Assembly (NCBI GenBank): GCA_001874005.1
Contig: MNYJ01000004.1
Location: 1-48,527, forward strand
DNA: 48,527 nt
Direction: 5' to 3'
DNA from: Desulfobacteraceae bacterium CG2_30_51_40
GTDB taxonomy: Bacteria; Desulfobacterota; DSM-4660; Desulfatiglandales; Desulfatiglandaceae
Both the position numbers and the translations under genes were made by a program. Positions 1 to 16,324 of the stretch are shown in pieces (within the stretch, counting starts at the first letter, position 1; every line of letters begins with the position of its first letter). Under the pieces are notes generated by a model, which saw only the letters and a program-made list of their open reading frames with translations, was not told the DNA's origin and did not search any database.

Positions 1-78
1 GTGTTCTATGAGTTCCCGCACGGTGACGATGTCCCCGTCGGTAATCAAACGACCCTGGATAAGACTTGGAATCTTCAT
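1..78 (-). CDS. Start of a possible DUF4338 (DruA-like, transposon-associated) protein, cut by window edge
   Basis: Reading leftward from an ATG at 78-76, 26 codons stay open to the window edge. The peptide begins MKIPSLIQGRLITDGD and continues IVTVRELIEH. From memory, this matches the usual opening of DUF4338 proteins, where an LIQGR-x-IT-x2-D-I segment is followed by a short helix of the VRELI type; such proteins are found in transposon-like settings and as DruA of Druantia defence systems. Only the first 26 residues are visible, so the family call rests on a short motif and is tentative. No strong Shine-Dalgarno sequence precedes the ATG. It starts about 100 bases beyond the point where the neighbouring response-regulator gene stops resembling its family, which fits an insertion into that gene. 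Confidence 0.4.
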   Translation of the reverse strand, partial: MKIPSLIQGRLITDGDIVTVRELIEH

Positions 79-177
79 GGCCAACCAATCTGCCATATTA
101 TGGAATCAGAGTCCAGGAAAAAATGCAGTCGTTTGAAAAATTATCCCTTCAGATTAAAGAAGGGGTGTGGAATGTAG
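79..177. other. Junction between the truncated regulator and the left-edge gene
   Basis: This stretch separates the last regulator-like codons (about position 178) from the start codon at 78. It holds a perfect 11-base palindrome, CCATATTATGG at 93-103, and no other gene-like reading. It probably contains the end of the element that replaced the 3' part of the regulator, but no terminal inverted repeat can be paired because the other end lies outside the window. Confidence 0.4.
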
Positions 178-723
178 GACAAAATGCTCGATCAGGGCGG
201 GGATATCCTCTCTACGTTCCTTAAGAGCCGGTACTTTCAGGGTAATAACATTGAGCCTGAAAAAAAGGTCTTCTCTGAATTTGCCATTCTTTACCTCATG
301 TTCCAAATCTCTGTTGGTGGCGCTTATCAGCCGCACGTCTGCTCTAAGGACTTGGCTTCCCCCCACCCTCTGGAACTCTCCTTCCTGCAGAAATCTGAGG
401 AGCTTGACCTGTACGGAGGGAGACAATTCGCCGATTTCGTCCAAGAAAAGGCTACCGCCGTCTGCCTGTTCAAAGCGACCGATCCTCCGCTGATGCGCGC
501 CTGTGAATGAACCCTTCTCATGACCGAAAAGCTCGCTTTCTATGATGGACTCCGTTAGCGCCCCGCAATTTACCGTGATCAACGCCTTGCCGGACCGTGG
601 GCTCAATGTGTGCATCAGTCGGGCGAAAAGTTCTTTTCCGGTGCCGCTTTCTCCTTCTATCAAGACAGAGGCTTTGCTGCCTGCAATCCTTCCTGCAAGG
701 TTTATAAGCTCAGCCATTTTCAC
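154..723 (-). pseudogene. AAA+ sigma-54 activation domain of broken NtrC/ZraR-type response regulator
   Basis: This is the central domain of a sigma-54-dependent activator, which hydrolyses ATP to open promoter complexes held by sigma-54 RNA polymerase. Visible motifs are Walker A GESGTGKE (residues 24-31), the sigma-54 contact loop GSFTGA (71-76; GAFTGA in most relatives), Walker B SLFLDEIGE and the FREDLFFRLNV segment. It is in the same frame as the receiver domain at 745-1170 and is separated from it only by a TAG codon (745-747) and seven further codons. A GTG at 723 could restart translation, but no clear ribosome site is seen. Family resemblance stops after ALIEHF; a foreign tail VLHSTPLL and a stop follow. 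The sensor II part of the AAA+ domain and the Fis-type DNA-binding helix-turn-helix are therefore missing, so the product should not bind its sites. Loss by insertion of the element at the window edge is inferred. Confidence 0.85.
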
Positions 724-744
724 ACTCTTAAATACTATCTGCTC

Positions 745-1170
745 CTAAGTTATGCTTTTCTCCTGAATTTGTCTTCGCAAAGTTTCATTTTCACGGATAA
801 GTGTCTTTCGCTCTGCCGCCTTCTTCAGGATAAGAAGCAATTCGTCCAGCTCTATGGGCTTTGTTATGTAATCTACGGCGCCTGCCTTCATGGCTTCAAC
901 GGCTGTCTCTATGGTTCCGTAAGCTGTTACCATTACTACATCCAGTTCAGGATTGATTTGCTTGAGGTCCTTGAGCACGTCAAGTCCATTTCGCCCAGGC
1001 ATCTTGAAGTCCATGACCACCACATCCAGGTCCCTGGCCCGAACAAGCTTGATTGCTTCCTCACCGTTTTCCGCGACGCTCACCCCATGGCCTTCCTTTG
1101 TCAAGAAATCCCTGAGCATTTCCCTCTGAGCGCGCTCGTCTTCAACAATCAAGATATCCTGCTTTTGCAT
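745..1170 (-). pseudogene. Receiver domain of the same broken response regulator
   Basis: A CheY-like receiver of 141 residues. The acidic pocket is at IVEDE (residues 8-12), the phosphoacceptor is Asp54 in VVMDFKMPG, the conserved Thr is at 82 and the Lys is at 104 in YITKP. It ends in the linker helix (ENETLRRQIQEK) that in NtrC-type regulators runs into the AAA+ domain. Here the linker meets an in-frame TAG at 747-745, and the reading after it continues as EQIVFKSVKMAEL, matching the linker of relatives. The defect is therefore a nonsense codon and not a frameshift. The start at 1170 is chosen because AAAGG lies just before it; an ATG at 1191 is possible. The gene follows its kinase by about 30 bases. 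A free phospho-receiver could still be made and act as a phosphate sink. Confidence 0.87.
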
Positions 1171-1203
1171 GATCAAACACCTTTCAGCCATCCCACTGAG
1201 GCA

Positions 1204-2973
1204 TCACCTCAGGGGGAGAATAATCTGAAAAACAGTCCCTTTTCCAGGCACGCTCTCAACAGAAATTTTCCCGCCGTGGGCCTGGATTATTTCACGGGCG
1301 ATAGGCAGTCCGAGCCCAAGCCCTTTTTCTTTGGTAGTGTACTCGAAATCAAATATCCGTTCAGTGTCCTTTTCGGCAATTCCAGCGCCTGTGTCCTTTA
1401 TCATTATAACCAGATGGTCGGAACGTGGGGAAACGCAGGAGACGCTAACCTTTCCCCTACCCTCGATTGATTCAACCGCGTTTTTCATAAGATTGAGCAG
1501 TGCCTGATGCATCATTGAGGCGTCCATCATGACAACGGCCTCGGGATCATCCCAGTAGAACTCGATCTCGATGCCCCTGGATTCAGCAAGTTCCTTTACA
1601 AGGATCAAGACTCGGTTAAGCACATCGGCTATTTTTCCCTGTTTGAAATCAGGGTGCCTTTCCCTTGCAGGTGATACGAATTCTTCAATGATCCTGTTGA
1701 GGCGCCTTATCTCCTCCCTGACCACCCCGAGGATATTCATGAATTCATCTTTGTTTAAGGACTCGGCGGGAGCAAATTCCCGCGCGATCCTCTGAATGGC
1801 AATGCTTACTGCATTTAGTGGGTTTCTTATCTCATGGGCAAACCCGGCAGCGATCCTCCCGAGAGAGGAAAGCCTTTCAGCCTGAGCAAGCCTTTTTCTC
1901 ATCTCCTGTATCTTTTTGGCGTGGCGCCCCTGAAGGCGGTAAAAGAGAAAAGCGGCTGCAACAAGAGCTGTCATCATGAGGAGGGCTGAAAGAAAGATAT
2001 GGCGCTGGTTTCTCTCCTTCAAACGAAACACCTCTTCCGTATCCATAGCTACCTGTGCAGTGCCTATCTGAATGCCTTCCAATCGCACGGGCGCGAATAC
2101 CTCCAAGAGCCTGGGAGAACCATCCAGAATCCTTCGACCCTCCCTGCCCGGCGCATCGGGTTTTGTTTTATCTGCTTCCTGAATGGAAACAAATGAGATG
2201 TCACCCCCGGCCGCCAGAAGATTACCGCTTGTATCTAAGACGGCAAAGTAATAGACCCCCTTTCGCCATCCCCTCTCCTCCACAGCCTCCTGGAAGGCCA
2301 CCTTGGAGGCCCTGTATTTGAGTCCTTCTCGGTTCAGCATCAAAAAGATCATTCCCGCGGATCTTTCCTTTTTGACCCCAACAATGGGGAATATCTCGCC
2401 TTTATCGTCTCTAGCATAAAAATTCAAAGCGACTGCGCCACCCGAATCAATCAACGATCTGATGTGCTTACCCATGCCTTGGGGAATCGGCGTGCTGGCA
2501 GATTGAATACTGCCTTCGTTATCAGTAACTATAATGCCAAGGATATTTTCCCGGATCTCGAACTCGCTTGTTTGGGTGGGCTCGGATGAAAATTCCTCAA
2601 GTCTGTGTTCAAGGGTCTTTGCTGTATCCAGAAGGCTGTTGAGGACTACTTCCTGAATTCTGAACCCTTCTTCAATGGCCTCTACATCAATAAAAGAGTT
2701 CTCTGCGCGGCCGGTTACCGCCATAAACTCTTTTAGCTTGTTCTGTGCCAATATCTCTACACTTTCTATGATTGTTTTCCCCTTATTTTCAAAGACATCA
2801 AGCAATGTATTTTGTGTGCGACCGATATCAAGAATCGCCGTGATAAAAAATAGGGAGACAATAATAAGACAGAACAAAACAAATATTACTGGAGGTAATA
2901 AAGGCGAGCTGAATACCGGCTCTTTACTATCGAGTCTGAATGGGTATCTCTTATTATTCGCTTCACCGCTCAC
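1204..2973 (-). CDS. Membrane sensor histidine kinase (ZraS/AtoS-like)
   Basis: The sensor of the two-component pair is 589 residues long. Transmembrane helices lie at about 27-49 and 326-346 and enclose a roughly 275-residue periplasmic sensor region that looks Cache-like in size. The cytoplasmic half has a HisKA domain with His380 in FAHEIRNPLNA, followed by a HATPase domain with the N-box Asn497 (LLNLMKNAVE), G1 DTGAGI (527-532) and G2 GLGLGL (551-556). All catalytic motifs look intact. The start is a GTG preceded by GAGGAGG. A sigma-54-type promoter (3093-3108) lies about 120 bases upstream. It faces a ZraP-like gene, the arrangement known for zraP-zraSR in enterobacteria, which suggests sensing of envelope or metal stress. 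Its partner regulator downstream is broken, so signalling by this pair is probably lost or redirected. Confidence 0.93.
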   Translation of the reverse strand: MSGEANNKRYPFRLDSKEPVFSSPLLPPVIFVLFCLIIVSLFFITAILDIGRTQNTLLDVFENKGKTIIESVEILAQNKLKEFMAVTGRAENSFIDVEAIEEGFRIQEVVLNSLLDTAKTLEHRLEEFSSEPTQTSEFEIRENILGIIVTDNEGSIQSASTPIPQGMGKHIRSLIDSGGAVALNFYARDDKGEIFPIVGVKKERSAGMIFLMLNREGLKYRASKVAFQEAVEERGWRKGVYYFAVLDTSGNLLAAGGDISFVSIQEADKTKPDAPGREGRRILDGSPRLLEVFAPVRLEGIQIGTAQVAMDTEEVFRLKERNQRHIFLSALLMMTALVAAAFLFYRLQGRHAKKIQEMRKRLAQAERLSSLGRIAAGFAHEIRNPLNAVSIAIQRIAREFAPAESLNKDEFMNILGVVREEIRRLNRIIEEFVSPARERHPDFKQGKIADVLNRVLILVKELAESRGIEIEFYWDDPEAVVMMDASMMHQALLNLMKNAVESIEGRGKVSVSCVSPRSDHLVIMIKDTGAGIAEKDTERIFDFEYTTKEKGLGLGLPIAREIIQAHGGKISVESVPGKGTVFQIILPLR

Positions 2974-3092
2974 TTGTGCGACCTCCTCAATTATCGAGCC
3001 GCTGCCCAGCGCAGAGGGGATTTGCGGGTGTAAATACTGTAAGGCCCCTGCACGGGGTTTAATACCATTTCATACACACAGAGGATTATTTG

Positions 3093-3108
3093 TGCAAAGC
3101 TTATTCCA
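3093..3108 (-). promoter_or_regulatory. Sigma-54 promoter for the kinase-regulator pair
   Basis: On the minus strand the sequence is TGGAATAAGCTTTGCA. It satisfies the GG-N10-GC rule, with a perfect TTGCA -12 element and a partial -24 element (TGGAAT against TGGCAC). Transcription would start near 3082 and give a leader of about 110 bases before the kinase GTG. With the promoter at 3378 it makes a divergent sigma-54 pair around shared activator sites. Confidence 0.62.
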
Positions 3109-3170
3109 GCAAGAGGGGAACTACAAGGAAAAGCGATTCTACTGAGCTGGCTTGAGTTACGGCTTTATCT

Positions 3171-3184
3171 CGACACAATTGTCG
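3171..3184. promoter_or_regulatory. Inverted repeat CGACA-N4-TGTCG, candidate activator site
   Basis: Perfect 5-base arms CGACA and TGTCG flank CAAT. It lies between the two divergent sigma-54 promoters, about 63 bases from the leftward one. The half-site recurs in the boxes at 3260 and 12849, where the second has TGTCCGACA. Binding by the ZraR-like regulator is inferred. Confidence 0.45.
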
Positions 3185-3259
3185 GGTTCACTAAAATCAT
3201 TTCCCACCGGTCAAAGATAAGCACTTTCAATAGGATGAAGCAACGATGAAGATGCTTTT

Positions 3260-3274
3260 CGACATTTGTTGCCT
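3260..3274. promoter_or_regulatory. Candidate upstream activator box CGACATTTGTTGCCT
   Basis: This 15-base box matches, with one difference, the box at 12849-12863. It starts 118 bases before the -24 element of the promoter at 3378; the other copy starts 112 bases before its own -24 element. Conserved sequence and spacing in front of two related genes fit an enhancer site for one sigma-54 activator. Confidence 0.5.
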
Positions 3275-3377
3275 CTAGCACCTGGTTCGCTATTCGTTGC
3301 ATTCTCCCGTGCATAATAGACCAATAGATTTGCATAATCAACATGTTGTCAAACGTCTTCTTACATGGCCTCGCTGG

Positions 3378-3394
3378 TGGCACAACCGCTGCAA
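3378..3394 (+). promoter_or_regulatory. Sigma-54 promoter of first ZraP-like gene
   Basis: TGGCACAACCGCTGCA has an exact TGGCAC -24 element and a CTGCA -12 element, with GG-N10-GC spacing. The predicted start is near 3404, which gives a leader of about 55 bases to the ATG at 3459. This is the best -24/-12 match found in the window. Confidence 0.78.
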
Positions 3395-3421
3395 TATCTG
3401 GTTGCACAACCGCTGCAGTAT
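3380..3421 (+). repeat. Two tandem copies of a promoter-core repeat, 24-base period
   Basis: GCACAACCGCTGCA occurs at 3380-3393 and again at 3404-3417, with related flanks (ATATC, GTATA). The first copy forms the sigma-54 core. The second lacks the GG of the -24 element because it is preceded by TT, so it is probably not a promoter but lies over the predicted start region. Confidence 0.7.
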
Positions 3422-3458
3422 AACGGACACAAATTCAATCAAAAAGGAGGTAGTAGAA

Positions 3459-3875
3459 ATGAAAAGTTCAACAAGAAAATTCGGAATGGTATTCGTGGGA
3501 GTGCTAGTGGTTATGTTTTTTGCATCCTTCGCACTTGCGGGCCCCGGCGGGTATGGTCGCGGGATGATGGGCAAGGGGGCCGGCGGCGGCCAGGGAATGG
3601 GCCCAGGTCAAGGCAATTGCTCCTACACAGGTTCGCTTACTGCGGAGCAGTCCAAGGAGGTGCAGACCTTGCGCGAAGGCTATATAAAGGAAATAACGCC
3701 GCTTCAGAACCAGCTCTTTGCCAAGAAGACCGAACTCAGGGTCCTATGGTCACAGGCAAATCCTGATAGGGCTGCGGTAATGGCAAAGCAGGCTGAACTC
3801 AATGAACTCCAAAGACAACTTCAGGAAAAGAACACTACATTCCAACTGGAGATGCGTTCTATCGCCGGAAGATAG
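3459..3875 (+). CDS. ZraP/Spy/CpxP-family periplasmic stress protein (first copy)
   Basis: A 138-residue secreted protein. The signal peptide covers about residues 1-26 (hydrophobic core VFVGVLVVMFFASFALA, cut before GPGG). A Gly/Met-rich segment follows, then a helical LTAEQ...L-x2-LR region typical of the heavy-metal-resistance/Spy fold, whose members bind metal or act as periplasmic chaperones. The start is fixed by AAAGGAGG at 3443-3450; upstream codons in the same frame give a Trp/His-rich extension that no relative would have. It is shorter at the C-terminus than the second copy at 13101, with which it shares the core ITPLQNQLF. It has its own sigma-54 promoter and is followed by two terminators. 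The exact substrate cannot be read from the sequence. Confidence 0.88.
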   Translation: MKSSTRKFGMVFVGVLVVMFFASFALAGPGGYGRGMMGKGAGGGQGMGPGQGNCSYTGSLTAEQSKEVQTLREGYIKEITPLQNQLFAKKTELRVLWSQANPDRAAVMAKQAELNELQRQLQEKNTTFQLEMRSIAGR

Positions 3876-3940: not shown

Positions 3941-3984
3941 GAGAGGCAGGAGAATGAGACGACTCCCTCCTGCCTCTTTTCTTT
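3941..3984 (+). terminator. Rho-independent terminator before the efflux operon
   Basis: GAGGCAGGAG pairs with CTCCTGCCTC (ending 3976) over a loop of about 14 bases, followed by TTTTCTTT. With the preceding hairpin it should separate the ZraP-like transcript from the TolC gene. Confidence 0.82.
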
Positions 3985-4055
3985 GACATGTCGAGATGAG
4001 ACGCGGAATCCACAGGAGAGATCAGGCGGTGGACGGACAGTTGAAAAGAGCAGCA

Positions 4056-5471
4056 ATGAAATATCTAATGAATATAACGGGAATAATTTCAATCTTGTTT
4101 TTCTGTGGATGTGTCATGATGTATCCTACCGATCCTTTTTCAGGGGGTGCATTGAATTCACTCGGCGCTGCGCGCGCTGCTTCCCTCCATTCTCTCCGAC
4201 CTTTGCCTCAGGAACCGATTGCCTTAAGGGATGCGATCAGGATTGGCCTTGAGAACAATCCCGATATCGCAGCCGCGGAGATGGATGAAAACAGCGCTAT
4301 GGCCCAATATGACCTTGCCTTTGCAGAAAGACTTCCGAACATCAAGGCAGTCGGAGGTTATCTTCATTATTCAGATGATCAACGTTTGGTCCAAGCAACC
4401 TACAACGGCGAGCCTGGAACCTTCGGTAGCGACATTGCTTCGGCAGATATAACACTGAACCTTCCGCTCTTCACTGGAGGGCGCATCATAAACCAGGTGA
4501 ATGCTGCTGAACTCCTTCATAAGGCCTCCGGGCAGAGACTTGCAAGAACCCGTCAGGAATTGACATTCAATATCTCCAGTGTTTTTTTTAACATACTTGC
4601 CCAGCAACGGGTTGTGGAGTCATTGGATTTTTCGAAGAATGTCCTTGAAGAGAATCTTCGAAGAGTGAAGGCCCTGATCTCAGCCAAGAAGGCTGCCAAA
4701 GTTGACCTGCTTCGAAACGAGGTACGCCTTGCAGACATCCGGCAGCGCTTGGTTCGCGAGCAAAACACTATGGCCGTGCAATATCGGATCCTGGCCAACC
4801 TACTCGGCGTAGGAGGTGAGCCGAATAAGCCGCCTGCGATTCAAGGAGATCTCCTAAGCAGGGAGGAGGTTGATATTCCTGAATGTGCGTCAGCTTTGGA
4901 CAAGGCCCGATCTCAAAGGGGAGACTATCTCGCTGCTCGTCTATTGCTTGAAGGACTAGCCAGAAGCGTTGATTCTGCCAGGGCTGGATATCTACCCACA
5001 ATAGCCCTGCAAGGCTCCTACGGTGAACGCCTGGCACTGGGTTCAGCTACAGGCCCCACCAGCGGTCTTGATCGCGGCGAAGAATTGGGGCGTATCGGGA
5101 TTGTTGCTGAGATTCCCTTATTTGATGGGGGAAGGACCGGCGCTAAGGTCAGAGAACAATTATCCAGACTTGGCTCAGCTCGGGAGCGTTTGAGAAAACT
5201 GGAACTTCAAATATGCCTCGAGGTCGAGACCGCTCTCCTGAATATTAATTCTTCAAGGGAAAGGATCCTCGGCACCCAAAAGGCAGTGGATCAGGCAAAG
5301 GAGAGTCTTCGTATCGAGGGTCTTAAGTATGAAGCCGGCAAAGGCTCGATAGTGGATGTGTTCGATGCTGAGAGGGCCTTGCTCGACTCACAGGTAAACT
5401 ACTACCGGTCTCATGCTGATCTTAAAACTGCGATGGCACAGTTGAAATTAGTAACAGGAGCAACGTTATGA
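4056..5471 (+). CDS. TolC-family outer-membrane efflux protein
   Basis: The outer-membrane channel of a tripartite pump, 471 residues from the chosen start. The N-terminus has a hydrophobic stretch ending in ILFFCGC, a likely lipoprotein signal, so the mature protein may be lipid-anchored as in OprM. Two OEP repeats follow, each opening with the usual form (LRDAIRIGLENNPDI near 65-80; the second after the middle) and containing NLPLFTGGRI and EIPLFDGGRT, the strand-turn signatures of the beta-barrel part. Start 4056 gives a clean signal sequence; an upstream ATG at 3996 would add a charged extension. A TTGACA at 3983-3988 could be a -35 box but has a poor -10. The stop overlaps the next start by ATGA. 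Confidence 0.9.
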   Translation: MKYLMNITGIISILFFCGCVMMYPTDPFSGGALNSLGAARAASLHSLRPLPQEPIALRDAIRIGLENNPDIAAAEMDENSAMAQYDLAFAERLPNIKAVGGYLHYSDDQRLVQATYNGEPGTFGSDIASADITLNLPLFTGGRIINQVNAAELLHKASGQRLARTRQELTFNISSVFFNILAQQRVVESLDFSKNVLEENLRRVKALISAKKAAKVDLLRNEVRLADIRQRLVREQNTMAVQYRILANLLGVGGEPNKPPAIQGDLLSREEVDIPECASALDKARSQRGDYLAARLLLEGLARSVDSARAGYLPTIALQGSYGERLALGSATGPTSGLDRGEELGRIGIVAEIPLFDGGRTGAKVREQLSRLGSARERLRKLELQICLEVETALLNINSSRERILGTQKAVDQAKESLRIEGLKYEAGKGSIVDVFDAERALLDSQVNYYRSHADLKTAMAQLKLVTGATL

Positions 5472-6538
5472 AACCTGCTATTCCAAGGATAATTCTGTTT
5501 GTATTTCTCGCAGTGGGAACGATTGTTACGGTCAGCGGGATTTCTTCAAGTCAAAAGGAGACAACTCAGCCCTCCTCACCGACCAAGGCAGCGGAGGTGA
5601 AAGTTGCTGCTGTTGCTCGCGGCGATATCGCAAGATTTCTTGATTTGAGCGGCACTGTGGAGCCTTACCGTATCGCCCAGATTGCATCCCCTGCAGAGGG
5701 GCCGATTATGAATATAAGAGTGTGGGAGGGAGACCGTGTAGAAGTCGGATCTCTCTTAATGGCAGTAGGCCGCAAGAAGGGTATTGATGCACTCATTGTC
5801 TCCCTTCGAGAAGATGTAAGAAAAGAAGAAGACAACTACATACGTGTTAAGGGCCTGGTCGAAGAGGACGCGCTTCCCGCAGAGCAACTTGACAATGCCA
5901 AGTCCAGTCTCGAAAAGGCAAGGTCTCAGCTTATAAAGGCGGAAGAAACAATGGGAGACTATTCGATTCTGGCCCCATGGCGGGGGATAGTATCTCGTGT
6001 AAAGGTGAGAGAGGGAGATTTTGTAGGACCGCGCGCACCCCTGATTGAGATATATGATCCGGGCAGTCTGATCATCAGGCTCGCATTGCCGGAGGCTGTT
6101 GCTGCCGGCATCAAAAGCGATATGAAGCTGGAAGTCACGCTGGATGCGTTCCCAGGCAGTCTTTTTCATGCCAGGATAGTGAGGCTTTATCCTTACCTGG
6201 AGCCTCGCACGAGAACAAGGACACTCGAGGCGAAGATAATAGAACCCATAGAGATATTGCCGGGGATGTTCGCGAGGGTGCGGCTTCAAGTAGAATCGGT
6301 GACGGATGCACTTGTTGCGCCCGTGGAAGCGGTGAAGGTCTCCCCGCGCGGGAAAAAGATAATATTCGTCGTAAATCAGGGCACCGCTTCGAGACGAGAG
6401 GTTGAAACAGGAATAGAAAATGGCGGCAGAATTGAAATAAAGAGAGGTCTTTCGCTCGGTGAACAGGTGATTGTGGCCGGGAACGAGAACCTCACTGACG
6501 GTACTCGAATCCAGGTTAGAGAGGGAAAGCCGCAATGA
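5468..6538 (+). CDS. RND efflux periplasmic adaptor (membrane fusion protein, HlyD/AcrA family)
   Basis: A 356-residue adaptor that links the inner-membrane RND pump to the TolC-type channel. It has an N-terminal signal/anchor at about 8-27 and a first half of the lipoyl-like hybrid domain (GTVEPYRIAQIASPAEGPI, about 58-76). A coiled-coil hairpin, about 105-150, is rich in Glu/Lys, and the second lipoyl half is near YSILAPWRG. A beta-barrel domain and a membrane-proximal domain (ending near ENLTDGTRIQV) complete the normal order. It is translationally coupled on both sides by ATGA overlaps (5468 and 6535). Substrate is unknown. Confidence 0.93.
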   Translation: MKPAIPRIILFVFLAVGTIVTVSGISSSQKETTQPSSPTKAAEVKVAAVARGDIARFLDLSGTVEPYRIAQIASPAEGPIMNIRVWEGDRVEVGSLLMAVGRKKGIDALIVSLREDVRKEEDNYIRVKGLVEEDALPAEQLDNAKSSLEKARSQLIKAEETMGDYSILAPWRGIVSRVKVREGDFVGPRAPLIEIYDPGSLIIRLALPEAVAAGIKSDMKLEVTLDAFPGSLFHARIVRLYPYLEPRTRTRTLEAKIIEPIEILPGMFARVRLQVESVTDALVAPVEAVKVSPRGKKIIFVVNQGTASRREVETGIENGGRIEIKRGLSLGEQVIVAGNENLTDGTRIQVREGKPQ

Positions 6539-8895
6539 AGGCTACTTCCCTGGCAGTTAGAAAACGAATCGCATCCAGCGTAATAGCTTTTGCGCTTGTG
6601 GTTCTAGGAGCCTATGGACTGCTGAGCCTGCCGGTTAATTTCCTGCCGGATATGACCTATCCTATGATCAAGGTCAATATCTGGTGGAGAGGCGCCACAC
6701 CAGAGGAAATAGACACAAATATCGCTGACCCTGTGGAACGAATTATGGCCACTGTAGATGGGCTCGATTACCTTGAATCATCATCCATTGAAGGTATGTA
6801 CTCCCTCACAGCGAACTTTAAGTACTCTGTTGACTTGAACACGGCTTATCAAGATGCCCTGGCGGCCATGGCGAGAGTGGCCAGGCAGTTACCCAAGGAC
6901 ATTGATCCGCCGATTATATTCAAGGCTGATCCCACTCAGCTTCCTGTGGTTCAGCTTACTATACGCTCTGAAGAAAAAGACCTGGTGGAGATCCGCTCCT
7001 GGGTTGAGAACTGGCTTCAAAAGCAACTTCTCTCCGTTGCAGGGGTCGCGGGTACGGAGATAGTCGGGGGATTAAAGCGGGAAATCCGTGTGCATCTTGA
7101 TCCCGGGGCCATGGAAAAATACAGCCTTTCTCTCCAAACGGTTCTGAAGAGAATGCAGGAGGAAAACATTGATCAATTTGCGGGCCGTATTACTGCGGGA
7201 CCGCGTGAGATAATAGCCAGAACATCGGGAGAATACCGCTCTCTTGAGGAAATAAGAACAGTTGTCCTGGCGAGGAAGGGAGATGCTAAAATAACTCTGG
7301 AGGATATTGCCGAAGTAGTTGACTCCCATGAGCAGGTACGAGTAATTACCCGTCTGGGAGGCCGACCCTGCGTCAAGTTGAGTATCCTCAAACAGGCGGA
7401 TGCAAATACAGTGGAGGTTGCGGATGCCGTTAATAACAAAATAGAGGAACTGCGCCCTTCTCTTCCTGCCGGGATAGAGCTGGGTGTAGTTGAAAACCAG
7501 GCAGATTATGTCTTGCCTGCCCTAAGGGGTGTGCGCAATGCGGCAATTGAGGCTGCGATCCTTGTTCTAATAGTAGTTTATCTATTCCTGGGAAGCCTGC
7601 GCCAGGTTTTGGTAATGCTCCTTGCCTTGCCCATAACACTTGTCCTTAATTTCGCGATCATGAAATTGGCGGGTTTTTCCCTTAACATCTTTTCCCTGGG
7701 GGGCCTGGTGGTTGCTATAGGGGTGGTGCTCGACAACTCTATAGTGGTTATCGAAAATATTACCCGCCTTCGCCATGAAAGTTTGACAGGGTCAACAGAA
7801 GAGATTGCTATCGAAGGCACAAATCAGGTGGGTTCGGCGATACTCGCAGCCACCCTTTCTTTCATAGCTCTGTTTGTGCCTTTTCTTCTTGTGCCAGGCT
7901 TGACGAGCCTTCTTTTTAAGGAATTGATTCTCGTCATAGCCGGAATAGTTTCAGTAAGTTTGATAATTGCCGTGACCTTGACGCCTATGCTGACGGCGAT
8001 TCTCTTAAAGGGTAACGGTAACGCAGGACCAAGAAAAACGCTGTTTGAGAAGTTTTTTGATAAGGTCACTAGTCTGTATGGAAGGTCTCTTTCCTGGACC
8101 ATGCGGGAGAGATGGCTTACCTTTTCTTTTTTCATAATGGCACTGATCATTGCCGTCGCTCTGGCCCCAAGGCTGGGCAGCGAATTCCTCCCCCAGATGG
8201 ATGACGGCAGGATTATGATAAAGGCCAAACTCCCCACCGGCGCGTCTCTTAATGAAACCGACAGTGTCCTGCGACAAATAGAGGCACAACTGATCAATGA
8301 TCCCATTATTGAAAGCTATTTTACCTTGAGCGGCGGAAAAGTCCTGGGCCTTTATACCTATGAAATCGCAAACGAGGGAGAGGTTGATATCCAGCTTGTG
8401 CCGCGTCATAGTCGTAAAATAAGCACAAAGGATTACATAAAGACGCTGAGGCCTAAGGCAGTTGCGGTGTCTGTCCCGGGCGGCAAGGTTATTGTGACTC
8501 AAGCCAAGGTTAAGGGAATGCGTAAAATAGGAGAGGCAGATATCGAAATCAAGATAAAGGGCCAGAACCTTGGAACGCTTTTCTCTATTGCAAACGATTA
8601 CGCTAGACTCATGAGCGGCCTCAAGCAGTTTGCAAATGTCTATGTCACCATGGATATGAATAAGCCTGAATACCAGATAAGGGTGGACCGAACCCGGGCT
8701 GCAGAAATGGGCGTTTCGGTCTCGGATGTCGCCAATACGGCCAGATCCTTCCTGAACGGCGCAGTGGCAACCCGCTATAAGCAAGGTGATGATTTCTACA
8801 ATATCAGATTGATGATTGCCGAGAGCCGAGTTACCTCACGCAGTGATGTGGAGGGACTCCTTGTGAACACGAGCCAGGGGGGTACCTCAGGCTGA
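6535..8895 (+). CDS. RND efflux pump, N-terminal part of a frameshifted gene
   Basis: The inner-membrane proton-driven pump of the tripartite system. This reading gives 786 residues: TM1 at about 9-28, the first periplasmic loop, TM2-TM6 with VLDNSIVVIENI around Asp400 (the position of the proton-relay acid pair in AcrB; only one acid is present, as in many HAE-type relatives), TM7 and most of the second periplasmic loop. It ends early at TGA 8893-8895, after LVNTSQGG. The following bases in another frame continue the protein without a gap (YLRLRDVADVTEASG). The frames cross at a run of six G (8877-8882); seven G would restore one reading frame of 1021 residues, a normal RND length. Either the gene is broken, the run varies in length, or the sequence has an indel error. 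Without the last third the pump cannot assemble. Confidence 0.88.
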   Translation: MKATSLAVRKRIASSVIAFALVVLGAYGLLSLPVNFLPDMTYPMIKVNIWWRGATPEEIDTNIADPVERIMATVDGLDYLESSSIEGMYSLTANFKYSVDLNTAYQDALAAMARVARQLPKDIDPPIIFKADPTQLPVVQLTIRSEEKDLVEIRSWVENWLQKQLLSVAGVAGTEIVGGLKREIRVHLDPGAMEKYSLSLQTVLKRMQEENIDQFAGRITAGPREIIARTSGEYRSLEEIRTVVLARKGDAKITLEDIAEVVDSHEQVRVITRLGGRPCVKLSILKQADANTVEVADAVNNKIEELRPSLPAGIELGVVENQADYVLPALRGVRNAAIEAAILVLIVVYLFLGSLRQVLVMLLALPITLVLNFAIMKLAGFSLNIFSLGGLVVAIGVVLDNSIVVIENITRLRHESLTGSTEEIAIEGTNQVGSAILAATLSFIALFVPFLLVPGLTSLLFKELILVIAGIVSVSLIIAVTLTPMLTAILLKGNGNAGPRKTLFEKFFDKVTSLYGRSLSWTMRERWLTFSFFIMALIIAVALAPRLGSEFLPQMDDGRIMIKAKLPTGASLNETDSVLRQIEAQLINDPIIESYFTLSGGKVLGLYTYEIANEGEVDIQLVPRHSRKISTKDYIKTLRPKAVAVSVPGGKVIVTQAKVKGMRKIGEADIEIKIKGQNLGTLFSIANDYARLMSGLKQFANVYVTMDMNKPEYQIRVDRTRAAEMGVSVSDVANTARSFLNGAVATRYKQGDDFYNIRLMIAESRVTSRSDVEGLLVNTSQGGTSG

Positions 8896-9599
8896 GAGAC
8901 GTAGCGGATGTTACGGAGGCTTCGGGTCCGGTGGAGATTTCGCGGGAAGACCAAGTCAAGGCCGTGGTGGTGCGCGGGGATGCAGCAGGCACAAGCGTAG
9001 GTGAGGCGCTCGCTTCCCTGAAGAGAACCATTGAGGGCACCCCCATACCTACAGGATATCAGATAAGTTTCGGGGGCCAAGCCCAGATGATGGCTGAAAT
9101 GACTCAAACAGTCAAAATTATTTTGGCGTTTGCGCTCTTTTTCTCCTTCGTAGTCCTTGCAGTGCAGTTCAACAACTTAAGACTGCCGGCAATAATTCTG
9201 GGCTGTCTGCCGTTTTGTGCGGCAGGAATGATATATGCTCTCTACTTGTCGCAACTTCCCGTTGGTGCTACTGTCCTTATAGGGCTTCTGGTAGTCGCCG
9301 CTGCAATGGTGAACGGAGGAGTGCTGCTCCTGGTTTTGGCGGAAGAGCTGCGGCAGAGTGAAGGGCTTACTCCGTTTGAGGCAGTGCTGAAGGCGGCAAA
9401 GATACGTTTGCGGCCCCGTGTAATGATAGCCGTAGCTGTTATTGTGGGATTCATCCCCCTGGCCCTGAATCTTGAAGAAGGCGGCGATATGTTGCAACCC
9501 ATGGCAGTGGGTGCTATCGGAGGATTGCTGCTGGGCATAATGGTCGCGCTCTTTTTGATGCCTTGTCTTTACCTTATTTTTTCTCGAAGGACGAGTTAA
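8883..9599 (+). pseudogene. RND efflux pump, C-terminal part after the frameshift
   Basis: This in-frame continuation of the RND pump has no proper start of its own; the first ATG-like codons lie inside the domain. It contains the end of the second periplasmic loop (YLRLRDVADV, the usual hydrophobic-LRDVA segment) and then TM8-TM12, with helices near KIILAFALFFSFVVLAVQF, GATVLIGLLVVAAAMVNGG, RVMIAVAVIVGFIPLAL and GLLLGIMVALFLMPCLYLIF. It ends with a short basic tail. Together with 6535-8895 it makes one complete RND protein if one base is added in the G run at 8877-8882. Confidence 0.87.
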
Positions 9600-9614: not shown

Positions 9615-10139
9615 ATGCACACTGATGATTTCAAAAGAAAGCTTACCGTAGCTTTCAGTGCCGACGCGGTCGGCTACAGCCGTTTGATGGGTGATGATGA
9701 GACGGCTACAGTCAAGACCTTGGAAGAATACAAGCAGGTAATGTCAGACCTGATCCTGGGGCACGGAGGTCGCGTTGTTGACTCTACCGGAGACAACCTG
9801 CTTGGGGAATTCGCAAGTGTAGTTGATGCCGTCAAGTGCGCGGTGGCCGTTCAAAATGCCCTTCGAGAGCGCAATGATGGCCTTTGCGAACAGCGAAGGA
9901 TGCTTTTTCGCATAGGCATCAACCTGGGAGATGTCATTGAGAAAGAGGGAAGGATTTATGGGGACGGTGTGAACATAGCCGCCAGACTTGAGTCCCTTGC
10001 CGATCCCGGCGGTATCTGCGTTTCCAAGACAGTAATTGACCAGATCGAAACGAAGCTGCCGTTCAGCTACGAGTATCTGGGTAAAAAGAGGGTAAAAAAA
10101 CATCGAAAAAACCATTCCCTCTTACAAGGTGCATTTTGA
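9615..10139 (+). CDS. Class III adenylate/guanylate cyclase domain, 5' part of a frameshifted gene
   Basis: A cyclase homology domain making a cyclic nucleotide from ATP or GTP in the cytoplasm. Metal-binding aspartates are visible at Asp17 (FSADAVGYSRLMGDDE) and Asp59 (VVDSTGDNLLGEF), and the transition-state Asn/Arg pair lies in VNIAARLES. The last normal residues are YLGKKRV; then an extra A in a run of seven (10094-10100) shifts the frame and gives a false tail ending at 10139. With six A the protein continues as KNIEKTIPSYKVHFEAAE into the reading at 10129-11505, giving 629 residues: cyclase, one TM, TolB-like domain, TPRs. This is a known arrangement for soluble-domain-first cyclases. 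It begins 15 bases after the RND gene and is probably in that operon. Confidence 0.85.
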   Translation: MHTDDFKRKLTVAFSADAVGYSRLMGDDETATVKTLEEYKQVMSDLILGHGGRVVDSTGDNLLGEFASVVDAVKCAVAVQNALRERNDGLCEQRRMLFRIGINLGDVIEKEGRIYGDGVNIAARLESLADPGGICVSKTVIDQIETKLPFSYEYLGKKRVKKHRKNHSLLQGAF

Positions 10140-12672: not shown

Positions 12673-12848
12673 GTTCCTTTCCTGTTAAAGATTTTCTTGG
12701 AGATCCATCAAAAACCAGCTTCATCAGCCTAGAGAGGTGGTTTGTGAAGACTCCATTCTCGACAATCGTGTCGAATCCATGAAAAACTCTTCCATTCCAT
12801 TTATTATATTGGATTAATTATCTTTTTAAATCTATGCATAAAATTGTC

Positions 12849-12863
12849 CGACATTTATTGCCT
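12849..12863. promoter_or_regulatory. Candidate upstream activator box CGACATTTATTGCCT
   Basis: This box differs by one base from the box at 3260-3274 and lies 112 bases before the -24 element at 12961. Its left end overlaps TGTCCGACA (12846-12854), a perfect inverted repeat built from the same half-site as CGACA-N4-TGTCG at 3171. No gene was found between 12673 and 13100; this box, the promoter at 12961 and the leader are what that stretch holds. Confidence 0.5.
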
Positions 12864-12960
12864 TATGACGCCCGAACACACCTCATTCGTTAGTAATGGC
12901 CTCTAAAGAAAAACCTATTCCTTTCAATATGTTCTTCAGTTCAGATCCTATGCTCCATCC

Positions 12961-12976
12961 TGGCACTCAAGGTGCA
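12961..12976 (+). promoter_or_regulatory. Sigma-54 promoter of second ZraP-like gene and envelope cluster
   Basis: TGGCACTCAAGGTGCA has an exact -24 element TGGCAC and GG-N10-GC spacing, with a GTGCA -12 element. The expected start near 12988 leaves a leader of about 113 bases before ATG 13101. A 60-codon open frame crossing this site (12896-13078) has no family features and is not accepted as a gene. Confidence 0.7.
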
Positions 12977-13100: not shown

Positions 13101-13568
13101 ATGAGGCGAGTTATTTTTTCATTTGTTTTTTTGTCTTTGGCTCTCTGGGCCACTTCGGCATTTGCCGGCCCCTGGGGAAGAGGAATGGGCACAGGCGCCT
13201 TTGACTCACTTCCTGCTGAGGCCGCATTAGGTTTGACATCAGAGCAGTCCCAAAAGCTTCAAACGCTTAGGCAAGCTTATCTGGATAATATAACACCTTT
13301 ACAAAATCAGCTTTTCAGCAGGAAAGCCGAACTCAGGCTGCTCTGGTCCGCGCAAAACCCTGACCAAGAACAAATTGCCTCCAAGCAGAAGGAGATCAAC
13401 GAGCTTGAGCAGAAGATAGAGGAAATATCAACCAGACATCGGCTCGATTGCAGGGAGGTGCTGACACCGGAGCAAAGGGAGAAAGCGGCCAAGATGGAGG
13501 GAGGGAGGCATAGAGGCCCGGGGTGGAGATCCGGGAGAATGTCACAGGGGTGGAAAGGAGAAAACTGA
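13101..13568 (+). CDS. ZraP/Spy/CpxP-family periplasmic stress protein (second copy)
   Basis: 155 residues. Signal peptide MRRVIFSFVFLSLALWATSAFA is cut before GPWG. The helical core has LTSEQSQKLQTLR, ITPLQNQLFSRKAELRLLWS, a Glu/Lys-rich coiled segment, and VLTPEQREKAAKM, the second LTxxQ motif of this family. The tail is rich in Gly, Arg, His and Met, a possible metal-binding end. It is a clear paralogue of the protein at 3459 but keeps the C-terminal part which that copy lacks. GGAGG at 13087-13091 fixes the start. It is the first gene after a sigma-54 promoter and lies 29 bases before the ABC ATPase, so it probably leads that operon. Confidence 0.9.
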   Translation: MRRVIFSFVFLSLALWATSAFAGPWGRGMGTGAFDSLPAEAALGLTSEQSQKLQTLRQAYLDNITPLQNQLFSRKAELRLLWSAQNPDQEQIASKQKEINELEQKIEEISTRHRLDCREVLTPEQREKAAKMEGGRHRGPGWRSGRMSQGWKGEN

Positions 13569-13597
13569 ACCATGGATTTATCAGGAGGATTAGTGTC

Positions 13598-14302
13598 TTG
13601 GAACTTGTTACAGCAAAGGACTTAAAGAAGACTTACGGAACCGGTAATGCTGCCGTGGATGCCTTGAAGGGCGTGAGCTTCTCCGTTGAGAAAGGAGCAT
13701 TCCTTTCAGTTATAGGCCCTTCCGGAAGCGGGAAGACTACACTTCTAAACCTCATAGGATGTCTTGACAGGCCGTCAGAAGGAAGTCTTTCTGTTGCCGG
13801 GACAGAGGTATCCGGCTTGAGCCGAAGGGACGGGGCCAGGTTCAGAGGAAACAAAATAGGCTTTATTTTCCAGAGCTTCAACCTTATTCCAGTGTTGACA
13901 GTATTTGAAAATGTTGAATATCCTCTCGTGATGGTTCAGGAGGTGCCCGCCTCCACCAGGAGTAAGCGCATAATGGCGCTTCTGGAGGCGGTCGGAATGG
14001 CTGATCAGAAGAAGAAACTTCCAGATCAGCTTTCAGGAGGCCAAAAACAGCGGGTTGCCATTGCAAGAGCGCTTGTGACCCATCCCGAGCTTGTGCTTGC
14101 AGATGAACCGACTGCAAATCTTGATAGGGATACCGCGCAGTCCATCATAAGGCTTATGAAGACCATCCGAAATGATTTCCAGACCACCTTTATATTCTCA
14201 ACTCATGACGCAAGGATAATTGATGAGGCCGAGCGTATCCTTCGCATAGAGGACGGAAGGCTTACTTCAAACGGCAATAACGGAGGCATACGACATGACT
14301 AA
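13598..14302 (+). CDS. ABC transporter ATPase, LolD/MacB type
   Basis: 234 residues from the chosen TTG. Walker A is GPSGSGKTT, the Q-loop is FIFQSFNLIP (the SFNL form typical of MacB/LolD/FtsE), the signature is LSGGQKQRVAIARAL, Walker B is LVLADEPTANLD and the H-loop is STHD. All are intact. The TTG at 13598 is preferred to upstream codons because AGGAGG at 13583-13588 is correctly placed and it gives the family length. It overlaps the FtsX-type permease by 8 bases, the usual pairing for type VII ABC systems, which use ATP in the cytoplasm to drive lipoprotein or periplasmic substrate movement and do not pump through the membrane themselves. Confidence 0.92.
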   Translation: MELVTAKDLKKTYGTGNAAVDALKGVSFSVEKGAFLSVIGPSGSGKTTLLNLIGCLDRPSEGSLSVAGTEVSGLSRRDGARFRGNKIGFIFQSFNLIPVLTVFENVEYPLVMVQEVPASTRSKRIMALLEAVGMADQKKKLPDQLSGGQKQRVAIARALVTHPELVLADEPTANLDRDTAQSIIRLMKTIRNDFQTTFIFSTHDARIIDEAERILRIEDGRLTSNGNNGGIRHD

Positions 14303-15536
14303 CACCTTGAGAATTGCCGTCAGGAACCTCTTTCGTTACAAGAGAAGGACCATTCTGACCCTTAGCCTGATCGTCCTGGGAATAATGTTCGTATCCATCT
14401 TTATTGCAGTTACCGGATCGTTCAAGAATATGATGATCGGCCAGATGACTGACTCCATGCTCGGGCATATCCAAGTCCACAGAAAGGGATATCTCGCTGC
14501 AATAGACAATTTACCCCTTAACCTGAATATGAAGTCTCAGGCATATAAGAAACTCGAAAAAACGCTCGATGACCTGCATGAAATTGAAGCCTACTCACCC
14601 AGGATCAAATTTGGGGGCATGTTCAGCACCTTTGTGGAGACGACCAATATACGGCTTAACGGTGTTTATCCCGATAGAGAATCAAAAACCGTCCCGCTGC
14701 TTCCCTCAAGGCTTATTGAGGGTAAAGGCGCGACCCTCAGTAAGGGTGAAATATGGATTCCGGAACTTATGTCCAAGAGCATGAAAGCAAAGATGGGAGA
14801 CATGATTGTCATCATCGCCACCAACCAGGACGGCTCGGTCAACGGCAAGCAGTTTAAGGTCTCGGGCGTCCTTGAAAGCGTCACAGGGCCGGGCGGCAGG
14901 GACGGCTATATCCACATCGAGGACGCAATGGAGGTACTTAGAATGGAGAATATGGAGATAAGCGAGGTGGCTATACGTCTCAAGAATTTCGGGGATATGA
15001 ATCCCCTGAGCAGCAAACTTGACACTCTCCTTGCCTCCCAGCTCAACAAGCAGGGCAAGCCCATGTTCGAGGTTCACACCTGGGAGAAGCTTTCGCCCTT
15101 CTACAACATCGCTCGTATGATTGACATCATGACCCTTTTCATAAAAATCATGCTTATTGCCATTGTGCTGATAAGCATCATGAATGTCATGATCATGGCG
15201 GTTTACGAACGGATTAGGGAGATAGGAACAATAGCAGCAATTGGCACCCTTCCGGGAAGAATCCTTTCCATGTTCGTCCTTGAAGGGTTTTGCATGGGCG
15301 CGGCAGGCACCGTGATAGGGGGTGTCTTGAGTGCCCTAATCATATATTTTGCCAACATGGCCAGGATCACCTTCGATTTCGGCAGGCAGACCGGGCTGGT
15401 CCTCTCGGCAGCCATAAGCCTTTCGGAAATTTTGACCATTTCAGGCATTGTCATTGCGGTTTCCATTGTCGCAAGCCTCCAGCCTGCTCTTAAAGCGGCG
15501 AGGATGGACCCCATCGAGGCACTGGGACATGTATGA
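14295..15536 (+). CDS. ABC permease with FtsX/MacB fold (LolC/E-like)
   Basis: 413 residues with the type VII layout. TM1 is at about 18-40 (RRTILTLSLIVLGIMFVSIFIAV), a large periplasmic domain lies at about 45-270 (MacB_PCD-like), then three helices near 275-300, 325-350 and 375-400. The cytoplasmic coupling helix ends in the usual (A/S)LxPAxKAAxxDPxEAL form, here SLQPALKAARMDPIEALGHV. It overlaps the ATPase gene and is followed after about 50 bases by a LolA-like gene. That neighbour suggests lipoprotein or hydrophobic-ligand transfer toward the outer membrane, but the substrate is inferred only. Confidence 0.92.
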   Translation: MTNTLRIAVRNLFRYKRRTILTLSLIVLGIMFVSIFIAVTGSFKNMMIGQMTDSMLGHIQVHRKGYLAAIDNLPLNLNMKSQAYKKLEKTLDDLHEIEAYSPRIKFGGMFSTFVETTNIRLNGVYPDRESKTVPLLPSRLIEGKGATLSKGEIWIPELMSKSMKAKMGDMIVIIATNQDGSVNGKQFKVSGVLESVTGPGGRDGYIHIEDAMEVLRMENMEISEVAIRLKNFGDMNPLSSKLDTLLASQLNKQGKPMFEVHTWEKLSPFYNIARMIDIMTLFIKIMLIAIVLISIMNVMIMAVYERIREIGTIAAIGTLPGRILSMFVLEGFCMGAAGTVIGGVLSALIIYFANMARITFDFGRQTGLVLSAAISLSEILTISGIVIAVSIVASLQPALKAARMDPIEALGHV

Positions 15537-15587
15537 AGGCGCTGGCTCATGAATGAAATGGCGATTCAATTCGTTAGGAGATTTGGA

Positions 15588-16316
15588 ATGAAAGCATTGT
15601 TTTCTCTGTTGGCGGTTTTATTATGCGCGGCCCCGGCCTATGCCATTGATGGGAAGCAGCTCCTGGAACAAGTGGACAGAAATCTGGCCCCAGAGTCTTA
15701 TGAGCTATATAGAAAACTCATCAATATCGAACCGGATGGAAGGAAAAAGGAATTCGTCCTCTATACGGTGAAAAAGGGAAAGGACAAGATAGCAGGCCTT
15801 TTCATCGCGCCTGCCAGCGAGAAAGGCCGAAGCACCCTTCGCCTTGGAGACAACATGTGGCTTTATATACCCAATGTGGGGAAGCCCATAAGGATAACAA
15901 GCCTCCAGTCCGTCATTGGTGGCGTCTTCAACAATTCAGACATACTTCAGCTTGATTATTCGGAGGAATACGACGTGGCGAAGGTGGAGGATCTGGGAAA
16001 GGAATATCTTCTGCAACTAAAGGCCAGGACGAAAACCGTTGCATACGATCAACTCAAGATGTGGGTGGACAAGAAGAATGTGTCACCCACAAAGATCGAG
16101 TGTCTAACCGAGGCCTCCATGCTCATCAAGACCATCTATTTCAAGGACATAAAGGACTTTGGAGATGGACTGGTGAGGCCTGCATCGGTTGAGACGGACA
16201 GCCCTCTCTACAAAGGATACAAATCGGTTATGCTCTTTGCCAACTTCAAGAAAAAGGAAGTGGCCGATGAAGTGTTCACCTTGACCTTCATGCCCAACAT
16301 TGACTCGGTCAGATAG
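15588..16316 (+). CDS. LolA-like outer-membrane lipoprotein-sorting protein
   Basis: 242 residues, secreted. The signal peptide is MKALFSLLAVLLCAAPAYA, cut before IDGKQ. The remainder is an all-beta LolA/LolB-type fold of the COG2834 subgroup: FVLYTVKKGKDKIAGLFIAPASEKGRSTLRLGDNMWLYIPNVGKPIRI, then strands such as YLLQLKARTKTVAYDQLKMWVD. This subgroup usually accompanies MacB-type permeases or RND/MmpL exporters and is distinct from the housekeeping LolA. ATG 15588 has TAGGAG upstream and begins the signal peptide directly; an ATG at 15549 would add 13 residues. It is probably the periplasmic carrier of the cluster. Confidence 0.87.
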   Translation: MKALFSLLAVLLCAAPAYAIDGKQLLEQVDRNLAPESYELYRKLINIEPDGRKKEFVLYTVKKGKDKIAGLFIAPASEKGRSTLRLGDNMWLYIPNVGKPIRITSLQSVIGGVFNNSDILQLDYSEEYDVAKVEDLGKEYLLQLKARTKTVAYDQLKMWVDKKNVSPTKIECLTEASMLIKTIYFKDIKDFGDGLVRPASVETDSPLYKGYKSVMLFANFKKKEVADEVFTLTFMPNIDSVR

Positions 16317-16324
16317 CTCCTCCC

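What the first reader, a model, noticed from the sequence alone, without database searches (positions are those of the whole stretch)
2974..3458. Divergent sigma-54 promoters around shared activator sites between a sensor kinase and a ZraP-like gene
Both strands have GG-N10-GC matches (3093-3108 minus, 3378-3394 plus), with CGACA-based sites in between. This suggests one sigma-54 activator autoregulates its operon and drives a periplasmic stress gene, as in zraP-zraSR, but in a different phylum and with a different site sequence.
Basis: partly seen in the sequence, partly recalled or inferred. Interest (0 to 1): 0.65.

Follow-up and report, generated by a model that had tools for sequence, protein, structure and literature searches.

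The report
Metal-stress promoter hub, broken master switch
A stretch of DNA between a sensor gene and a metal-stress gene carries a real, widely conserved on-switch of a known type, built around a DNA landing site seen across related bacteria, while the regulator gene that should read it is interrupted by a jumping gene in this genome.

Summary
In a whole-window scan (97,022 positions; recalled matrix) the best sigma-54 site is 3377-3393(+), upstream of the ZraP-like gene; third best is 3093-3109(-), facing the kinase; second best, 12960-12976(+), serves a second ZraP-like gene 9 kb away.

The CGACA sites form a bipartite enhancer, TTCGACA-N4-TGTCGAA plus TTCGACA-N5-TGCCG. All 17 relatives with a divergent zraP-like/kinase pair have both sites and a zraP-directed sigma-54 site. 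A genome-collection scan found 33 matches to the 31-type enhancer; 20 have a sigma-54 site 78-106 bp downstream. The ABC/LolA-like operon behind the second window promoter has the enhancer in two relatives too.

The kinase-facing sigma-54 site is not conserved: 0 of 18 relatives. It may be lineage-specific autoregulation or chance.

The cognate regulator is broken here: an in-frame TAG, and a multicopy insertion element separating the DNA-binding end onto contig C3. Both window enhancers have 89-bp internal spacing, against 31-32 in 16 of 17 relatives.

Verdict: ZraSR-like logic, new variant; not a member of the ZraSR/ZraP equivalog families.

The parts
3377..3393 (+). sigma-54 core promoter (GTGGCACAACCGCTGCA) for the ZraP-like gene; predicted start of transcription about 3403-3405
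   Evidence: Best matrix score in the whole window, 16.4; orthologous sites score 14.6-18.1 in 17 of 17 relatives
3374..3421 (+). 24-bp tandem duplication of the core promoter; second copy (3398-3421) has lost the GG and scores 9.0
   Evidence: (92% identity)
3093..3109 (-). candidate sigma-54 promoter (CTGGAATAAGCTTTGCA) for the kinase operon; not conserved
   Evidence: Third best score in the window, 13.3; 0 of 18 relatives above 8
3169..3186 (.). enhancer site 1, palindrome CTCGACACAATTGTCGGG (family consensus TTCGACA-N4-TGTCGAA)
   Evidence: CGAC...GTCG invariant in 19 of 19 promoters
3258..3274 (+). enhancer site 2, TTCGACATTTGTTGCCT (family consensus TTCGACA-N5-TGCCG); 89 bp from site 1
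3459..3875 (+). ZraP-like periplasmic protein (Metal_resist PF13801), 138 aa; calls used 3462-3875, i.e. without the initial Met
3941..3984 (+). intrinsic terminator-like hairpin plus T tract after the ZraP-like gene, before the efflux genes
   Evidence: fold (-24.3 kcal/mol); the simple scan did not list it
3996..5471 (+). TolC-type outer membrane efflux protein
5468..6538 (+). RND periplasmic adaptor
6535..9599 (+). RND pump, reading frame broken at a run of six G near 8877-8882 (ORFs 6535-8895 and 8931-9599)
1204..2973 (-). sensor histidine kinase with dCache-like periplasmic domain and ZraS-like kinase core
745..1191 (-). receiver domain of the NtrC-family response regulator; ends at an in-frame TAG (745-747)
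179..744 (-). AAA+ sigma-54 activation domain of the same response regulator, same frame, cut off by the insertion element
1..178 (.). end of an insertion element (terminal repeat AAGGGGTGTGGAATGT at 160-175, duplicated target TTTTGT at about 179-184); the regulator's DNA-binding end resumes on contig C3
   Evidence: 5 places in the genome carry this sequence
12758..12775 (.). enhancer site 1 of the second promoter (CTCGACAATCGTGTCGAA)
12847..12863 (+). enhancer site 2 of the second promoter (TCCGACATTTATTGCCT), again 89 bp from site 1
12960..12976 (+). sigma-54 promoter (CTGGCACTCAAGGTGCA) of the second operon, 15.9 bits
13101..13568 (+). second ZraP-like protein, 43% identical to the first
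13523..17623 (+). ABC ATPase, MacB/FtsX permease, LolA-like protein and an unassigned protein: second target operon
   Evidence: homologous operon behind the same enhancer in L099 and L100

Best explanation
This intergenic region is a sigma-54 control hub of a ZraSR-like envelope/metal stress system. A membrane kinase with a dCache-like periplasmic sensor phosphorylates an NtrC-family regulator. Two regulator dimers bind the bipartite enhancer (palindrome at 3169-3186, second site at 3258-3274) and, by DNA looping, drive sigma-54 polymerase waiting at 3377-3393 to transcribe the ZraP-like gene and, past a leaky terminator, a TolC/adaptor/RND efflux system. The same regulator class drives a second operon (ZraP-like, ABC transporter, LolA-like) from 12758-12976. 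The weaker minus-strand site at 3093-3109 may add autoregulation of the kinase operon in this lineage only. In the sequenced genome the regulator gene is interrupted (TAG and insertion element), so the circuit is probably silent, or read by an intact cousin regulator on contig C220 that keeps the same recognition helix and has its own TCGACA palindrome. Shown by sequence: the sites, their conservation, the second promoter, the breakage. Inferred: phosphorylation, binding by this regulator, looping, stress signal, readthrough of the terminator, present silence.
For: zraP-directed sigma-54 site in 17 of 17 relatives, 14.6-18.1 bits, with both enhancer sites upstream; the same test on the kinase strand gives 0 of 18, an internal control. 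Independent scan: of 33 enhancer matches in the genome collection, 20 have a sigma-54 site (at least 14.0 bits) 78-106 bp downstream; the 13 others (several in unrelated phyla) have none above 10.2. Recognition helix GISERxLRYK is shared by the enhancer-linked regulators with a complete C-terminus, by the window regulator's end on C3 (GLSERMLRYK) and by the C220 cousin, but not by the 7 other own-genome paralogs whose end could be read. Second operon: ATPase 65% and LolA-like 64% identical to the operon behind the same enhancer in L100. One sigma-54 gene in the genome. Kinase core closest to ZraS 9jfj among single-domain fold hits; sensor domain hits are dCache domains. Regulator breakage.
Against: No transcription data. 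The matrix is recalled. Kinase-side site not conserved. 89-bp spacing differs from 31-32 in relatives, so binding by the same kind of complex is not certain. A terminator sits between the ZraP-like gene and the pump. Regulator and pump genes are broken in this assembly, so the circuit may no longer work. No zinc or other inducer is shown. The sensor fold match is weak in TM-score (0.2-0.35).
Confidence: 0.82

Rival explanations
1. The kinase-facing sigma-54 site at 3093-3109 is a coincidence; the kinase operon is transcribed from an ordinary promoter and only the ZraP side is sigma-54 dependent, so the hub is one-sided.
For: 0 of 18 relatives have a kinase-directed site above 8 bits; the site departs from consensus in the -24 element (TGGAAT).
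Against: Third best of 97,022 positions and 0.3-0.7% by chance in the available stretch; lies about 63 bp from enhancer site 1, a workable distance.
Confidence: 0.42
2. The enhancers are now read by another activator, the intact cousin regulator on contig C220, whose recognition helix and palindrome are nearly the same; it has taken over the orphaned promoters.
For: C220 regulator helix GISERVLRYKM and palindrome TCGACAATCCTGTCGA about 86 bp upstream of a sigma-54-like site on the same contig.
Against: C220's second half-site has a different order and spacing; no expression data.
Confidence: 0.2
3. The whole locus is a relic: regulator split, pump frameshifted, enhancers drifting under no selection, which also explains the altered 89-bp spacing.
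For: TAG plus insertion element in the regulator, frame break in the pump, flanks of site 1 degraded (CTCGACA...TGTCGGG, 11 of 14).
Against: Spacing is exactly 89 in both promoters although the spacers are barely more alike than shuffled sequence (26 of 75 against 20.9, p about 0.10); ZraP-like and kinase reading frames are intact; single-base breaks could be assembly errors.
Confidence: 0.3

Closest known systems
ZraSR-ZraP of E. coli and Salmonella
   Same: Kinase and NtrC-family regulator divergent from a periplasmic ZraP-type chaperone gene; sigma-54 promoter with activator sites between; ZraP structure 3lay matched at E=2.7e-5, kinase core like ZraS 9jfj, relatives' regulator AAA+ like ZraR 1ojl. 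Divergent sigma-54 promoters for zraSR and zraP are stated in passages read of PMC4987338.
   Different: Kinase and ZraP-like protein fall below the ZraS/ZraP equivalog cut-offs; recognition helix SERMLRYK versus TRKTLLAK in 1ojl; second target is an ABC/LolA-like operon and the zraP-like gene is followed by an RND pump; the E. coli regulon in PMC7657598 passages is zraP, zraSR, mgtA; kinase-side sigma-54 site not conserved in relatives.
Sigma-54 regulators mapped in Desulfovibrio vulgaris (PMC3333781, PMC4641369)
   Same: Same broad group of bacteria, palindromic sites and sigma-54 promoters.
   Different: The letters TCGAC/GTCGA (PMC3333781) and TCGACA/TGTCGA (PMC4641369) do not occur in the main texts searched; motif logos and supplementary tables were not readable, so an identical site there cannot be excluded.
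Cousin system on contig C220 of the same genome and C128 of G001
   Same: TCGACA-N4-TGTCGA palindrome and a sigma-54-like site in both; on C220 an NtrC-family regulator with GISERVLRYK helix.
   Different: Second site is an inverted half TGTCGAA close by; -12 element reads TTGAA; different target genes.

Membership tests
ZraSR-ZraP (enteric) | Kinase passes the ZraS equivalog cut-off (NF007688, 479 bits) | tested here: not met
   227.5 bits
ZraSR-ZraP (enteric) | Periplasmic protein passes the ZraP equivalog cut-off (NF008584, 200 bits) | tested here: not met
   31.3 bits; but PF13801 Metal_resist passes
ZraSR-ZraP (enteric) | Regulator passes the ZraR equivalog cut-off (NF007689, 760 bits) | tested here: inconclusive
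   Gene is in pieces; AAA+ piece 251.4 and receiver 94.9 bits
ZraSR-ZraP (enteric) | Divergent gene order kinase-regulator / zraP | tested here: met
   Window and 17 of 24 best relatives' loci; in 5 of the other 7 the contig ends at or near the kinase
ZraSR-ZraP (enteric) | Sigma-54 promoter for zraP with regulator sites upstream | tested here: met
ZraSR-ZraP (enteric) | Sigma-54 promoter for zraSR (autoregulation) | tested here: inconclusive
   13.3-bit site in the window, absent in 18 of 18 relatives
ZraSR-ZraP (enteric) | Zinc/envelope stress inducible | not testable with these tools
   no expression data
sigma-54-dependent promoter class | -24 GG / -12 GC element above background and a sigma-54 gene | tested here: met
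sigma-54-dependent promoter class | Conserved activator sites roughly 70-200 bp upstream | tested here: met
sigma-54-dependent promoter class | Measured start of transcription 12-15 bases after the GC | not testable with these tools
   needs RNA data

The most novel reading that the evidence does not exclude
A conserved enhancer code (TTCGACA-N4-TGTCGAA + TTCGACA-N5-TGCCG, read by a helix SERxLRYK) defines an undescribed envelope-stress regulon across several classes of former Deltaproteobacteria; in the window's lineage its internal spacing moved in concert at both promoters from 31-32 to exactly 89 bp, i.e. from about 3 to about 8.5 helical turns, implying that the regulator's assembly geometry was rewired; and in Syntrophorhabdales-like genomes the same enhancer drives a conserved structured small RNA that is not in Rfam.
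Probability: 0.35. Interest if true: 0.65.

Novelty: new variant of a known kind. Interest (0 to 1): 0.5.

Why it matters
Genomes of the Desulfobacteria are among those richest in sigma-54 activators (stated in a passage read of PMC12316311), and many have no known site or target. Here a regulator type, its recognition helix, its DNA site, its core promoter and two target operons can be tied together from sequence, which makes binding and regulon predictions directly testable in cultivable relatives. The matched 89-bp spacing across two unlike spacers is a natural test of how rigid enhancer geometry must be, and the orphaned promoters are a natural case of what happens when a regulator is lost while a cousin with the same helix remains.

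Tried and rejected
Loose consensus scan with mismatches: no excess over chance, so a weighted matrix was used. Idea that the regulator was broken by a frameshift: rejected, receiver and AAA+ are in one frame separated by a single TAG. Idea that TAG is read as an amino acid: not pursued; the ZraP-like gene itself ends in TAG, and a second own-genome regulator match (C72) also shows one TAG. Idea that the second promoter is a recent copy of the first: spacer identity 26 of 75, shuffles 20.9 +/- 3.7, ZraP-like proteins only 43% identical; not supported but not excluded. Search for the small RNA in 99 relatives including the own genome: none, while the model does find it in 5 of 8 genomes given as a check. 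Rfam: nothing at gathering score in six loci. Whole-kinase fold search was dominated by the kinase core, so the sensor domain was folded alone. Sigma-70-like promoters in the region: 2 found, 1.4 expected, uninformative. Literature searches showed no description of this enhancer; most papers were seen as listings only; passages were read of PMC4641369, PMC3333781, PMC12316311, PMC8836040, PMC4987338 and PMC7657598.

Full report
What is in the window. The window is the whole of contig C16 of a 3.44-Mb, 229-contig genome. On the minus strand lie a sensor kinase (1204-2973) and, behind it, pieces of an NtrC-family response regulator (745-1191 and 179-744). On the plus strand lie a ZraP-like periplasmic protein (3459-3875, PF13801), a terminator-like hairpin (3941-3984), and TolC, adaptor and RND pump genes. 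The genome has one sigma-54 gene. The host is therefore inferred to be a relative of NaphS2 in the former Deltaproteobacteria.

The promoter sites. With a matrix written from the recalled sigma-54 consensus, 3377-3393(+) is the best of 97,022 window positions (16.4 bits) and 3093-3109(-) the third (13.3); the second best (15.9) is 12960-12976(+). No other position reaches 12 bits. Markov controls put a site of 13.28 bits or more at 33 of 1,940,440 positions, or 99 of 2,832,000 with intergenic composition. The plus-strand core promoter is a 24-bp tandem duplication whose second copy is degraded.

Conservation. The kinase was sought in 99 genomes. Among the 24 best relatives' loci (L003-L026), 17 have a ZraP-like gene divergent from the kinase; one (L025) has two ZraP-like genes in the same direction; in five the contig ends at or near the kinase; one (L013) showed no ZraP-like match. 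All 17 divergent loci have a zraP-directed sigma-54 site of 14.6-18.1 bits and both enhancer sites upstream. The other strand of the same regions serves as a control: 0 of 18 distinct relatives have a kinase-directed site above 8 bits; the maximum is 7.9. Five of the 23 relative rows of that call repeat loci already counted.

The enhancer. Over 19 promoters (17 relatives, 2 window), site 1 is TTCGACA-N4-TGTCGAA with CGAC and GTCG invariant, and site 2 is TTCGACA-N5-TGCCG with CGACA invariant. In 16 of 17 relatives the sites are 31-32 bp apart and site 2 is 94-105 bp from the GG; in L017 they are 86 bp apart; in both window promoters 89 bp. A pattern with 89-type spacing occurs twice in the own genome, both times at these promoters, and in none of the 84 other genomes of the class; the 31-type pattern occurs in 8 of 85.

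Independent test. One scan of the named genome collection with the 31-type enhancer gave 33 stretches. In 20 of them a sigma-54 site of at least 14.0 bits lies 78-106 bp downstream; these records are titled as Deltaproteobacteria, Desulfobacterales, Desulfobacteraceae, Syntrophobacterales, Syntrophorhabdus, or simply as proteobacteria. The other 13, among them Streptomyces, Devosia, Ruegeria and Salipiger, have no site above 10.2 bits; most are likely chance, though L122 (10.1 bits) precedes the ABC operon. Seven of the 20 are loci of genomes already seen in the first set.

Targets. The second window promoter precedes a second ZraP-like gene (43% identical to the first) and an ABC ATPase, MacB/FtsX permease and LolA-like protein. 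The same kind of operon follows the enhancer in L099 and L100; ATPase and LolA-like protein are 65% and 64% identical to L100's. In L124 and L144 the enhancer precedes small exported proteins followed by the kinase, and in L124 also the regulator, in one direction, so autoregulation there would come from co-transcription.

The regulator. Relatives' regulators are 60-64% identical to the window's. The window gene has an in-frame TAG at 745-747 in an ungapped alignment, then stops matching at about 179. A 16-base repeat there is shared with the end of contig C3, where the missing DNA-binding end resumes, and TTTTGT flanks both sides. The sequence 1-175 occurs at five places in the genome. This is the signature of an insertion element inside the regulator gene. 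The DNA-binding helix on C3 reads GLSERMLRYKLKK; relatives' complete enhancer-linked regulators read GISERxLRYK, with small departures (ISERMLRYK after a different residue in L021, GMSERMLRYK in L124); of eight own-genome paralogs whose end could be read, only the C220 regulator shares it (GISERVLRYKMQK), and it sits on a contig with its own TCGACAATCCTGTCGA palindrome and sigma-54-like site. Salmonella ZraR has a different helix.

The sensor. The kinase core is nearest to ZraS 9jfj among single-domain hits. Folded alone, the periplasmic part (mean pLDDT 76.8) matches dCache ligand-binding domains, with low TM-scores. The ligand is unknown.

Mechanism and limits. Best reading: ZraSR-like logic in which a phosphorylated regulator on the bipartite enhancer activates sigma-54 polymerase at the zraP-like promoter and at the ABC/LolA-like promoter. 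Binding, looping, inducer and readthrough into the pump are inferred. Kinase-side autoregulation through 3093-3109 is about even. In this genome the circuit is probably silent or read by the C220 cousin.

Known or new. The kind is known: divergent sigma-54 promoters of zraSR and zraP are described (PMC4987338 passages; PMC7657598 passages). The enhancer, its helix, the second operon and the 89-bp spacing were not found in the searches listed under Tried and rejected; motif tables in supplements could not be read, so this is not proof of absence.

Side finding. In six loci of the scan the enhancer and sigma-54 site precede no protein but a 62-base, two-hairpin element with two pairs changed on both sides; shuffled controls reach that in 36 of 500, so covariation is only suggestive. 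It has no Rfam match. A model of it finds one copy in 9 of 46 genomes of the order of G099 and none in 99 relatives of the window; all 9 copies have a sigma-54 site (16.7-19.3 bits) and the enhancer upstream, including one whose palindrome was too degraded for the pattern.

Noticed in passing
L112, L114, L115, L129, L137, L142; also L150-L153: Conserved 62-base two-hairpin RNA-like element (loop with CCUUCCUCCCC) downstream of the same enhancer and a sigma-54 site, next to xerC/hslVU-like genes in several of them; not in Rfam; one copy in 9 of 46 genomes of that order. Candidate sigma-54-dependent small RNA.
   Followed up: partly
window 8877-8882: RND pump reading frame is broken at a run of six G; could be slippage, decay or an assembly error.
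   Followed up: no
G000 contig C72:4169-5563: A second response regulator of this genome matches through one in-frame TAG.
   Followed up: no
L097 (G000 contig C220) 1918-2022 and L107 (G001 contig C128) 2523-2629: Cousin promoter: palindrome TCGACA-N4-TGTCGA plus inverted half TGTCGAA and a sigma-54-like site ending TTGAA instead of TTGCA, in both species of the genus.
   Followed up: partly
window 9615-11505: Guanylate-cyclase-like protein and TPR protein between the two operons; they look like one gene split by a frame change near 10110.
   Followed up: no
L133 (G064 C409) and L143: Enhancer matches with ordinary spacing but no good sigma-54 site downstream.
   Followed up: no
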